From: Aquirufa aurantiipilula
GTDB taxonomy: Bacteria > Bacteroidota > Bacteroidia > Cytophagales > Spirosomataceae
DNA length: 64,000 nucleotides
NCBI RefSeq assembly: GCF_019923745.1
Contig: NZ_JAANOG010000007.1
Coordinates: 62,001 to 126,000, forward strand
Reading direction: 5' to 3'
A program made the position numbers and the translations under genes. The notes beneath the pieces were generated by a model. The model saw only the letters and a program-made list of their open reading frames with translations. It was not told the origin of the DNA and ran no database searches. Below are positions 12,434-15,861 of the stretch, in pieces. Positions within the stretch are counted from its first letter, which is position 1, and the number at the start of each line of letters is the position of its first letter.

Positions 12434-13807
12434 TCAGGGTTTTGTTTGCGGTAATGACATTGTAAACTCTGTCCATTCATTCGGATTGGATTGAACTTGA
12501 ATACTTCCATTATGTAAGTGAATGATGCGTTCTACTAATGAAAGCCCAATACCATAGCCTTTGGAAGAAGCGGTATTTTCTCCACGGAAAAATGGTTGGA
12601 AAATATATGGAAGATCCGATTTAGGAATACCTTTTCCTTCGTTTTTTACACGTATGTTGATGGTGTTATGGTAAACGCGTAATCCAACAAAAGCACAGTG
12701 CTTAGGACTGAATTTGCAGGCATTTTCCATTAAGTTTTTAATCGCCGTAAGAATCAGTTTCTCGTCACCACGAATCATCAATTCCTCTTCATCATCAGGC
12801 ATGAATGATGTATCGATGCTTACTTTATAATGGATATTTAGTTTTTGAGTTAAACTTCTTGCTTCCCAGATGATTTCATCAATGCGGATTAATTGAAAAC
12901 CAGCCTGGTAATCCGATACGCTAATTTTATTTAATTCCAATAAGGATTCAGTGATGGCAGCCAATTCTTGTGTATCCTCTAGTACAGAGGCAATTGTTTC
13001 TTTATAATCCTCTGCAGCTCTTTCTTTTAATAGACTTACCTCCAATTGAGAGGAAATCTTGGTCAAAGGATTCTTTAATTCATGGGAAACATTGGCAATA
13101 AAGGTTTTTTGTAGTTTAAAGGCATTCTCAATGCGTTCTAATAGTCGGTTGATAGTGGATACCATCTTCCCTATTTCGTCCTCAGAATCAGAGGATTCCA
13201 GCCTCTCTTCCAATCTTTTGGGAGAAAGATGATCTACCTGTTTGATAACTTCAGAAATGGGATTGACTGCCCTTCCTGCAAAAAACCAACCTGAGATCAC
13301 TACAATGAACACAAACAGTAAGAATAAGGCAATTAATATGTTTTTGAGGTCTTTGGCATTTTCAGCCGAATATTGGTCTACTGCCCCTGCAAAAACTACG
13401 ATTCTACCTTCTGGAGTGGCAAAAACTGTACCCAGGATTTCAATGTCGTCATGGGCAAAGCGGACTTCTTTTTTTCGTCGAACCTCTTTCACTCGATTGA
13501 CATCGATGTGAAAAGAAATGGTATCATTTGAGCGGTAAATACGCTCATTACAAGTATCATATGCCATGATATTTTCTCGAAAGAGAATATCCCGGTTCGC
13601 ACGGTCAATGATGCGTAACAACTTAGAATCCACTTGGTTAACATTCACCAAGAGTTCTGCCGCAGTGTTAGCCTTTTGCCTTAAACGGGAATAGAAATTT
13701 TCTTTGTAATTCTGTTGGGAGAAAATATAGATAATCAGATAGGATACGAATAATATCGCTGATACCAAATAGGTAAATTGATATGTCAATCGGGAACGTA
13801 TCTGCAT
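12434..13807 (-). CDS. sensor histidine kinase
   Basis: Membrane kinase of a two-component system, 457 residues. Transmembrane segments lie near residues 10-30 and 160-180 with a sensor region of about 130 residues between them, which would sit in the periplasm. HAMP follows (AGRAVNPISEVIKQVDHL), then HisKA with the phospho-accepting His at about 242 in FIANVSHELKNPLT, the N box IKNLMENACKFS, and the ATP-lid region VKNEGKGIPKSDLPYIFQPFFRG with GYGIGLSLVERI. The response regulator gene is 6 bases upstream in the same direction. Signal unknown; layout resembles CusS/heavy-metal type sensors, but no metal genes are near. Confidence 0.93.
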   Translation of the reverse strand: MQIRSRLTYQFTYLVSAILFVSYLIIYIFSQQNYKENFYSRLRQKANTAAELLVNVNQVDSKLLRIIDRANRDILFRENIMAYDTCNERIYRSNDTISFHIDVNRVKEVRRKKEVRFAHDDIEILGTVFATPEGRIVVFAGAVDQYSAENAKDLKNILIALFLLFVFIVVISGWFFAGRAVNPISEVIKQVDHLSPKRLEERLESSDSEDEIGKMVSTINRLLERIENAFKLQKTFIANVSHELKNPLTKISSQLEVSLLKERAAEDYKETIASVLEDTQELAAITESLLELNKISVSDYQAGFQLIRIDEIIWEARSLTQKLNIHYKVSIDTSFMPDDEEELMIRGDEKLILTAIKNLMENACKFSPKHCAFVGLRVYHNTINIRVKNEGKGIPKSDLPYIFQPFFRGENTASSKGYGIGLSLVERIIHLHNGSIQVQSNPNEWTEFTMSLPQTKP

Positions 13808-13813
13808 CTTATC

Positions 13814-14494
13814 TTATTCTTGTCGGAGGATATACCCCATACCAAATTGCGTATGAATCAATTTACTCGGAAAATTTTTATCCACTTTCTTACGAAGATA
13901 ATTAACATAAACCTCAATGAGATTCGATGAATTTTCATCTTCAACTTCCCAAATATTTTCAGCTATTTCAGCTTTAGAAATTACCTTTTCTTGATTTTTT
14001 AGAAAGTATTCCAATAATTGAAATTCTTTCGCTGTTAGATTGATCTTTTGACCTGAACGAGTCACCAATTTACTGGTCAAATCCAATTCAAGGTCAGCAA
14101 ACTTTAACACTTGAGAATCCACGAGAGTTTGATTTGATCGCTTAATAAGCGCTTTCACTCGTGCCATAAATTCCTTGAAATCAAAAGGTTTAGCCAGGTA
14201 ATCATCGGCTCCAGCCTCAAAACCAATTAGTTTATCATCAGTGGTGCTCAATGCCGTCAACATTAGTATGGGTGTTTGAATACCCAAACTTCTCAGTTCT
14301 TTACATAGCTCAATACCATTGATTCCAGGAATGATGATGTCTGAAACAATAAGCTGGTAAGTATTTCGGATAGCTAATTGTTTGCCCATGAGACCATCGT
14401 AGGCCACTTCTACCTCATAGTTATTCTCTTCCAATCCTCTTTTCAGCGATTGTACCGTTTTAGGTTCATCTTCTATGAGTAAGATTCGTATCAT
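13814..14494 (-). CDS. OmpR/PhoB-family response regulator
   Basis: 226 residues. Receiver domain 1-115 with acidic pocket near residues 8-10 (IEDEP), phosphorylation site Asp52 in VSDIIIPGINGIEL, and Lys at about 102 in YLAKPFDFKEF. The winged-helix DNA-binding domain covers about 130-226 (LTAKEFQLLEYFLKN, NLIEVYVNYLRKKVD). Its start codon overlaps the stop of the MazG-like gene (14491-14494) and the kinase gene follows after 6 bases, so three genes are probably one transcript. Targets cannot be read from the sequence. Confidence 0.94.
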   Translation of the reverse strand: MIRILLIEDEPKTVQSLKRGLEENNYEVEVAYDGLMGKQLAIRNTYQLIVSDIIIPGINGIELCKELRSLGIQTPILMLTALSTTDDKLIGFEAGADDYLAKPFDFKEFMARVKALIKRSNQTLVDSQVLKFADLELDLTSKLVTRSGQKINLTAKEFQLLEYFLKNQEKVISKAEIAENIWEVEDENSSNLIEVYVNYLRKKVDKNFPSKLIHTQFGMGYILRQE

Positions 14495-14958
14495 CCAAGG
14501 ATATCTTTTAAATTAGCCGGCGAATAGGCAATAGATTTTAATACTTTATTGTCGGATTTTCGGTATACTTTCCACAATCCATGCTCTTCTTTGATTTCAG
14601 CTTCCGTACCATCTTTTAGGAAATAATATTCGACTGTTTTTTCAGCTTCTTCAAGGCTTTTACAAGCTTTTGACATATTGGATCGCTGTACTTCATTGAA
14701 TAAATCAACAAATTTTTCGCCTAAACCAAATTCCAAAACGGCCCCAGAAAGTACATATTGTAAGTCACACAAGGCATCAGCAATTTCTACTAAATCTTGG
14801 TCTTTAATGGCTTGTTGTAATTCCTCCAATTCTTCTGCCAATAAACTCACGCGTAATTTACAGCGGTCCTCTGAGGGAATACAGGGCTGAGCTAAAATTG
14901 GAGCGCCAAATGTTTCATGAAATAAGGCAACTTGATTTAAGGAATCTATTTTTTTCAT
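14491..14958 (-). CDS. MazG-like nucleotide pyrophosphohydrolase
   Basis: All-alpha NTP pyrophosphohydrolase fold, 155 residues. The metal-binding signature is visible as AEELEELQ (42-46) followed by EIADALCDLQYV with Glu58, Asp61 and Asp65, the EExxE...ExxD pattern of MazG/HisE/dUTPase-2 proteins. The C-terminal 50 residues (TEAEIKEEHGLWKVYRKSD) are a small added beta part. Likely splits a nucleoside triphosphate or phosphoribosyl-ATP-like substrate; annotation as phosphoribosyl-ATP pyrophosphatase would not be supported because no his genes are near. First gene of the three-gene unit with the two-component system. Confidence 0.82.
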   Translation of the reverse strand: MKKIDSLNQVALFHETFGAPILAQPCIPSEDRCKLRVSLLAEELEELQQAIKDQDLVEIADALCDLQYVLSGAVLEFGLGEKFVDLFNEVQRSNMSKACKSLEEAEKTVEYYFLKDGTEAEIKEEHGLWKVYRKSDNKVLKSIAYSPANLKDILG

Positions 14959-15024
14959 ATGGTATATCTAATAGATTAAAATTAGTCAATTAATTGGTTA
15001 AAGTAAATCCCCGGAATAGATGCT

Positions 15025-15256
15025 TTTTCCACAAATTGATTTTGAAAATGTTCATTTCCATTGTTGAAATAGTGCTGACAAAATGAAGATTTGTTTCCTT
15101 TTGTACACATTTCCACTACTTATCCACAAAAACATGTGGACAAGTAAAGTTAGAAAGGTAAAAATCATCCTGATTTCATAGAATCATGGAGGATTTATGG
15201 GAAATGCAAGGGGCCTAAAATACAATTGTGCACGAATGTGGATAAGTCGTGGATAA
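15025..15256. other. DnaA-box cluster, candidate DnaA-binding locus or oriC
   Basis: Boxes by position: 15025-15033 TTTTCCACA (one mismatch to TTATCCACA), 15120-15128 TTATCCACA (exact), 15135-15143 TGTGGACAA (reverse, one mismatch), 15237-15245 TGTGGATAA (reverse, exact), 15248-15256 CGTGGATAA (reverse, one mismatch). The last two are adjacent, 11 bases apart in phase. Clustering in about 230 bases of non-coding DNA is unlikely by chance. Neighbouring highly expressed genes (gyrA on the left reading right; rpoD, pnp, rpsO on the right reading left) would all run against forks leaving this point, and dnaA or dnaN is absent, so an oriC call stays tentative; a DnaA-titration or regulatory site is the alternative. 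Confidence 0.5.
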
Positions 15257-15297
15257 GTCAACAGATATGTTACTAATTGTTAATTAGCTCAATATAT

Positions 15298-15327
15298 AGA
15301 ACAACAGGAATGTTAGAACAACAGGAA
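15298..15327. repeat. two 13-base direct repeats beside the DnaA boxes
   Basis: AGAACAACAGGAA occurs at 15298-15310 and again at 15315-15327, period 17 bases, on the XRE-gene side of the DnaA-box cluster and just after an AT-rich stretch. They resemble iterons or a double protein-binding site. Confidence 0.6.
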
Positions 15328-15348
15328 ATTATTTTCTTGTTAGTGGCA

Positions 15349-15861
15349 TCATTCGCTTGGTTTACTTTCACTGAATGAACCATCTGTATAAAAGATGATT
15401 ACTCGTTCAATCTTTTTGGTCACATGGGTACCTGAGGTGGGAAGACTTGGAACCATACTATTGTTATTCATCAAATTCGCATTTGACTGATTGATTTTAG
15501 TACTTTCTCTATTCCGCCTGAGATTTGACTGTACGATGGTCGGCTCAGCTAAAGAATTTTTATCCGATTCTGAAGGGCTTGCCTCTGGAGCATCAAAAAG
15601 TGATGGGCTACTACTACTGACTTCAATTTTAGCAGTAGATGAAGAATTGAAGGAGAGTAGTCGATCATCAAATAATAATTCCTCCGCAGTTAACTCTGGA
15701 AAGGCTTTAAGTATTTTTTGAACAACATCTAAGCTAGGCTTATTTCTGCCCGACAAGATATGAGATACGCTACTACGAGGTATTCCTATCTTGTCAGCAA
15801 ACTGAGAAGAACTGATTTGTTTTCTCTGAATTAACAATTCTATCTTTTGACTTAAATTCAT
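15349..15861 (-). CDS. XRE-family regulator with long low-complexity linker
   Basis: 170 residues. Residues 5-65 form a lambda-repressor/XRE helix-turn-helix (LIQRKQISSSQFADKIGIPR, SSVSHILSGRNKPSLDVVQK). The remainder is Ser/Asn-rich and looks unordered, ending in a short conserved strand VTKKIERVIIFYTDGSFSE. The latter motif is seen in many Bacteroidota XRE proteins of unknown role. The gene lies beside the DnaA-box cluster, with its stop 21 bases from the direct repeats; whether it acts on that region is not known. Confidence 0.8.
   Translation of the reverse strand: MNLSQKIELLIQRKQISSSQFADKIGIPRSSVSHILSGRNKPSLDVVQKILKAFPELTAEELLFDDRLLSFNSSSTAKIEVSSSSPSLFDAPEASPSESDKNSLAEPTIVQSNLRRNRESTKINQSNANLMNNNSMVPSLPTSGTHVTKKIERVIIFYTDGSFSESKPSE

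What the first reader, a model, noticed from the sequence alone, without database searches (positions are those of the whole stretch)
14991..15327. Cluster of DnaA boxes with iteron-like repeats, not obviously oriC
Five DnaA-box 9-mers (two exact) in about 230 bases of non-coding DNA, followed by AT-rich sequence and 13-base direct repeats. It looks like an origin, but gyrA on the left and rpoD/pnp/rpsO on the right point towards it, the opposite of the usual co-orientation, and no dnaA or dnaN is near.
Basis: partly seen in the sequence, partly recalled or inferred. Interest (0 to 1): 0.6.

Follow-up and report, generated by a model that had tools for sequence, protein, structure and literature searches.

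The report
Second, non-origin DnaA-binding cluster
This is a real, conserved cluster of binding sites for the replication initiator DnaA, but it is not where this freshwater bacterium (Aquirufa) starts copying its chromosome; it sits in front of a gene for a likely DNA-precursor clean-up enzyme that DnaA probably controls or uses as a parking place.

Summary
In detail: five DnaA boxes lie in 232 bp of non-coding DNA, against a maximum of three in 600 shuffles. The true origin of the same genome is on another contig (G000:C50, about 152.1-152.6 kb). It lies 4.5 kb past mnmG, with two perfect parS sites nearby and a clean GC-skew reversal (-0.07 to +0.08). The window locus has no skew reversal, no parS and no mnmG. 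In the single-contig relative G007 the two loci are 893 kb apart, and they are the only places with three or more exact boxes within 300 bp.

The window cluster is nonetheless conserved in all 30 Aquirufa genomes examined and in Sandaracinomonas. Its invariant core is a tandem "double DnaA box" (2-bp gap) followed by TTGTG[C/A]ACA. It lies upstream of an operon encoding a MazG/DR2231-like nucleotide pyrophosphohydrolase (a likely dUTPase; the family Spirosomaceae lacks canonical dut) and a two-component system. Most likely DnaA binds here as a transcription regulator of that operon, with some DnaA sequestration; a datA/DARS-like DnaA-control locus is the main rival. Neither function is tested. 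The 14-bp "iterons" are species-level and not conserved.

The parts
14959..15348 (.). Intergenic region holding the DnaA-box cluster
   Evidence: No ORF; the gene pair on either side is conserved in 30/30 Aquirufa loci fetched and in Sandaracinomonas
15217..15256 (-). Module A: tandem double DnaA box (TTATCCACG-AC-TTATCCACA, 2-bp gap, boxes at 15248-15256 and 15237-15245) followed by TTCGTGCACAATTGTATTTT
   Evidence: Double box plus T[T/C]GTG[C/A]ACA found in all 31 loci including Sandaracinomonas. GTGCACAATTGTATTT occurs once per genome, at this locus, in G000, G007 and G005
15101..15143 (-). Module B: inverted box pair (15135-15143 and 15120-15128, 15 bp start to start) plus weak third box TGTGTACAA (15101-15109)
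   Evidence: Pair at fixed 15-bp spacing with a third element about 34 bp on, in 25 of 31 loci; absent from the G007 clade
15025..15033 (+). Fifth DnaA box TTTTCCACA, nearest to the operon promoter
   Evidence: exact TTATCCACA in three clade-1 relatives (L048, L049, L050)
15297..15327 (+). Two 14-bp direct repeats TAGAACAACAGGAA (the 'iterons')
   Evidence: two copies in only 3 of 6 clade-1 species and in no other clade: not part of the conserved device
14977..15007 (-). Putative promoter of the downstream operon (TTTA-N19-TAATTTTA, Bacteroidota -33/-7 type)
   Evidence: TAATTTTA at a constant place just upstream of the ATG in all four clades; promoter assignment is inference
14491..14958 (-). 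PRA-PH / MazG-like nucleotide pyrophosphohydrolase, likely dUTPase (called maz here)
   Evidence: PF01503 E=4.6e-16; best solved relative DR2231
13814..14494 (-). OmpR-type response regulator, overlaps maz by 4 bp (operon)
   Evidence: adjacency conserved in Aquirufa and Sandaracinomonas
12434..13807 (-). Sensor histidine kinase, third gene of the operon
15349..15861 (-). XRE-family HTH protein whose 3' end faces the cluster
   Evidence: PF01381; found in 34/38 genus members

Best explanation
The locus is a second, non-origin DnaA-binding site. DnaA occupies the conserved tandem double box (module A) and, in most species, the inverted pair (module B), and forms a complex upstream of the maz-RR-HK promoter. 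The most likely main effect is to couple transcription of that operon, whose first gene is a likely dUTP/dNTP pyrophosphohydrolase, to DnaA level or nucleotide state and to passage of the fork. Holding several DnaA molecules away from oriC is a secondary effect. Shown by sequence: the cluster, its conservation, its separation from oriC, the operon and the absence of dut. Inferred: DnaA occupancy (from box sequence and arrangement), regulation of the operon and its sign, and dUTPase activity.
For: DnaA uses this 9-mer here: 9-10 exact copies sit at the skew reversal of G007. The window cluster is beyond chance. In clade 1, 75/93 module columns are invariant against 34/238 in the rest of the intergenic region. 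All 31 loci hold a tandem double box with a 2-bp gap, the upstream box imperfect in some; in E. coli, pairs 2-3 bp apart are what DnaA occupies genome-wide, at nucleotide-synthesis genes among others (nrdA, nrdD, purH; PMC11317965). Boxes are tied to maz rather than to the XRE gene: in sister genera g46 and g38 promoter-proximal boxes lie upstream of maz, in several cases without XRE nearby. DR2231-like maz is in 146/151 Spirosomaceae, while canonical dut is above cut-off in 0/81 but present in three other families of the order.
Against: The distance from module A to the maz start varies from about 90 to 277 bp, which is loose for a classical regulator. 27 other Spirosomaceae genera have maz with no box cluster, so DnaA control of maz is not general. 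No expression or binding data exist. dUTPase activity is inferred from a remote relative (E about 1e-6).
Confidence: 0.5

Rival explanations
1. A datA/DARS-like or titration locus: DnaA assembles here to be sequestered, inactivated or recharged, so setting initiation timing; the neighbouring genes are incidental.
For: Only two places per genome have three or more exact boxes within 300 bp: oriC and this one (G007, G029). The box modules are conserved while the distance to the promoter drifts. Module B (> 15 bp < ... weak <) resembles the DARS1 core (> 14 < 12 <) as read from E. coli MG1655; DARS boxes I and II oppose each other (PMC8682772).
Against: Module B is missing in the G007 clade. No IHF/Fis site could be tested. 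The cluster is absent from 27 of 30 other genera and lies about 70% of the way to the terminus in G007. It stays next to one particular gene.
Confidence: 0.33
2. Chromosomal oriC, or a second active origin.
For: Five DnaA boxes and AT-rich flank.
Against: Skew reversal, parS, mnmG and the denser box cluster are at C50:152 kb in the same genome. No replichore switch at the locus: fourfold-site skew is positive on both sides. In G007 the locus lies inside a positive-skew arm.
Confidence: 0.03
3. Relic of an integrated plasmid or phage origin (iterons plus DnaA boxes).
For: Direct repeats next to DnaA boxes.
Against: No replication gene beside it; flanking genes are chromosomal and syntenic across the genus and in Sandaracinomonas. 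The repeats are restricted to a few species.
Confidence: 0.02
4. The boxes mainly control the XRE gene or terminate its transcription (DnaA roadblock at its 3' end).
For: Module A lies 10-95 bp past the XRE stop codon in all clades; DnaA is known to block elongating polymerase (PMC11317965).
Against: In sister genus g46 boxes occur upstream of maz where no XRE gene was found.
Confidence: 0.08

Closest known systems
E. coli DnaA regulon 'double DnaA boxes' (nrdA, purH, nrdD promoters; PMC11317965)
   Same: Tandem boxes with a 2-3 bp gap upstream of a nucleotide-metabolism gene
   Different: Several boxes over about 230 bp, far upstream at a variable distance; different enzyme; different phylum
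E. coli DARS1/DARS2
   Same: Non-coding, away from oriC, opposed box pair plus a third box
   Different: Spacing 15/19 instead of 14/12; pair missing in one clade; accessory protein sites unknown
E. coli datA
   Same: About five DnaA boxes outside the origin
   Different: No IHF-site evidence; far from oriC in G007; next to a conserved operon
B. subtilis DnaA-box clusters such as yqeG-sda (from memory, not checked here)
   Same: Multi-box intergenic cluster that could both regulate a neighbour and bind DnaA
   Different: Different neighbour gene and box layout

Membership tests
oriC | GC-skew reversal (minus to plus) at the site | tested here: not met
   C51: fourfold skew positive on both sides; C50:152 kb shows the reversal; G007 also
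oriC | Proximity of parS and mnmG/dnaA-type origin neighbours | tested here: not met
   Nearest perfect parS on C50, beside mnmG; none in the window; dnaA on C11
oriC | Cluster of DnaA boxes beyond chance | tested here: met
   5 in 232 bp
DnaA-regulated promoter region | Tandem double DnaA box (2-3 bp gap) upstream of an operon | tested here: met
   All 31 loci, the upstream box imperfect in some
DnaA-regulated promoter region | DnaA occupancy and DnaA-dependent expression | not testable with these tools
   Needs ChIP-seq and transcript data
DARS | Core of three DnaA boxes with boxes I and II opposed | tested here: inconclusive
   Similar in module B, spacing differs (> 15 < 19 < against > 14 < 12 <), missing in one clade
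DARS | Stimulates ADP release from DnaA | not testable with these tools
   Biochemistry required
datA | IHF site between essential boxes | not tested
   No IHF consensus for this phylum was available
Iteron origin | Conserved iterons with a cognate Rep gene | tested here: not met
   Repeats not conserved; no rep gene adjacent

The most novel reading that the evidence does not exclude
A genus-wide Bacteroidota replication-control locus in which DnaA, bound at a double box plus a DARS-like inverted pair, both sets its own availability and times synthesis of the cell's replacement dUTPase, in a family that has lost canonical dut.
Probability: 0.2. Interest if true: 0.7.

Novelty: new member of a known kind. 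Interest (0 to 1): 0.42.

Why it matters
Non-origin DnaA control sites are known mainly from E. coli and B. subtilis. A sequence-conserved candidate in Bacteroidota would show that the second-cluster strategy arises elsewhere, and would link the initiator to dUTP clean-up. In practice, an origin caller that relies on box clusters alone could mis-place the Aquirufa origin here; the real one is next to mnmG and parS.

Tried and rejected
Reading the locus as oriC: rejected on skew, parS and gene neighbours. The half-parS-like element (TGTTYCACGTGAATAT) upstream of maz in other genera briefly suggested a segregation locus, but perfect parS sites lie beside mnmG on C50. Treating the 14-bp repeats as iterons or unwinding repeats: rejected, not conserved. 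A structured RNA: no Rfam family. Whole-genome skew of G000: not available as a file, replaced by contig skew and by G007. A DnaA-trio element at the true oriC: the sequence next to its boxes did not clearly fit the published 5'-YTR-3' rule, so it is not claimed. Control of maz as a family-wide rule: not supported; most genera lack the boxes.

Full report
Observation. The window holds 28 matches to TTATCCACA with at most one mismatch, little more than the 21.6 expected, but five of them fall in 15025-15256. In 600 dinucleotide shuffles of the window no 235-bp stretch held more than three. The stretch is non-coding, between ORF 14491-14958(-) and ORF 15349-15861(-). The direct repeats are 14 bp, at 15297 and 15314.

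Host. The adjacent XRE protein matches Aquirufa beregesia, A. ecclesiirivi, A. nivalisilvae and A. rosea at 73-88%, and the window lies in G000 (3.08 Mb, 70 contigs) at C51:62001-126000. The genus assignment rests on these matches.

Not the origin. In the single-contig relative G007 (2.505 Mb), sampled skew turns from minus to plus near 1.24 Mb and near 0.24 Mb, and not at the homologue of the window locus, 2,134.7 kb. Exact TTATCCACA searches show 9-10 copies at G007:C1:1241620-1242044, next to the first turning point; the window-type locus has three. No other place in G007 or G029 has three or more exact copies in 300 bp. The second turning point, with a matching plus-to-minus change near 0.84 Mb, looks like an inverted segment of one arm (real or an assembly artefact).

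The same origin in this genome. G000:C50:152064-152369 has eight boxes with at most one mismatch, and a ninth (exact) copy at 152641. It lies 4.5 kb beyond mnmG, and two perfect parS sites (TGTTTCACGTGAAACA) lie at C50:146092 and 147676. Skew of C50 is -0.04 to -0.10 in every 20-kb block to its left and +0.04 to +0.08 in every block to its right. On C51 skew of fourfold-degenerate sites is positive on both sides of the window locus, with no change of arm, and gene orientation alone accounts for the local drop in total skew. No parS occurs in the window. The window locus is therefore probably passed by one fork, moving left to right; that makes gyrA co-directional and sigma/pnp/rpsO head-on. 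Fork direction is inferred from skew and from G007.

Conservation. The XRE gene is found in 34 of 38 genus members. All 30 Aquirufa loci fetched, and Sandaracinomonas limnophila, have the order XRE - box cluster - maz. Two modules stand out. Module A, in all 31, is a tandem pair of boxes with a 2-bp gap (the upstream box imperfect in some species) followed by T[T/C]GTG[C/A]ACA; in most species this continues as ATTGTATTTT, a string found once per genome, at this locus, in G000, G007 and G005. Module B, in 25 of 31, is an inverted pair 15 bp start to start with a weaker third box about 34 bp from the start of the first; the clade of G007 lacks it. In clade 1, 75 of 93 module columns are invariant against 34 of 238 in the rest of the intergenic region. 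The distance from module A to the maz start varies from about 90 to 277 bp.

Phylogenetic depth. maz is in 146 of 151 Spirosomaceae sampled, but upstream boxes occur only in a few genera: 53 genomes from 30 other genera carry 24 boxes within 400 bp against 6.0 for permuted 9-mers, and 21 of the 24 are in three genera, g38, g40 (Sandaracinomonas) and g46. In g46 and g38 a box sits at a conserved place just upstream of a TAAATTTG promoter element, in several cases with no XRE gene in range. So the boxes follow maz.

The operon. maz encodes a PRA-PH/MazG-type protein whose best solved relative is DR2231 of Deinococcus, described as a MazG-like enzyme that can cleave dUTP (PMC5122711). Trimeric dUTPase (TIGR00576) is above cut-off in 0 of 81 Spirosomaceae, although present in three other families of the order. 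The MazG-like protein may thus stand in for dut; dimeric dUTPase was not searched for. A response regulator overlaps maz by 4 bp and a histidine kinase follows; this order is kept in Aquirufa and Sandaracinomonas.

Mechanism. ChIP-seq in E. coli shows that DnaA prefers pairs of boxes 2-3 bp apart, at oriC, DARS, datA and promoters of nucleotide-synthesis genes (PMC11317965). Module A has that arrangement and precedes a nucleotide-metabolism operon, so control of that operon by DnaA is the best-supported reading (about 0.5). Conserved modules with a drifting distance to the promoter, only two dense clusters per genome, and the DARS-like inverted pair (DARS1 core as read from MG1655: > 14 < 12 <) keep a titration or DnaA-recharging role open (about 0.33). 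The two are not exclusive.

Limits. No binding, expression or replication-timing data exist. G000 is in 70 contigs, so distance and direction to its own origin are inferred. Sampling of G007 was about two thirds of the chromosome.

Noticed in passing
G000:C50:146092-152649 (L136): Probable true oriC of this genome: mnmG, two perfect parS, 9 or more DnaA boxes, skew reversal.
   Followed up: yes
G007:C1:65-1441: dnaA lies almost exactly opposite the probable oriC (1.24 Mb away in a 2.5-Mb chromosome), i.e. near the terminus.
   Followed up: partly
G007:C1 about 250-835 kb: Skew of the arm is inverted over about 590 kb, suggesting a large recent inversion or an assembly error.
   Followed up: no
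L168-L178, about 100-150 bp upstream of maz: Conserved half-parS-like element TGTTYCACGTGAATAT upstream of maz in other Spirosomaceae genera, missing in Aquirufa; possibly a site for another regulator.
   Followed up: partly
Family Spirosomaceae: Canonical trimeric dUTPase is missing in 81 of 81 genomes at the curated cut-off, while a DR2231-like MazG protein is nearly universal.
   Followed up: partly
G080:C1:2915729-2916343: Another Spirosomaceae genus has three exact DnaA boxes in 615 bp away from both its parS region (2.50 Mb) and its maz gene (3.52 Mb).
   Followed up: no
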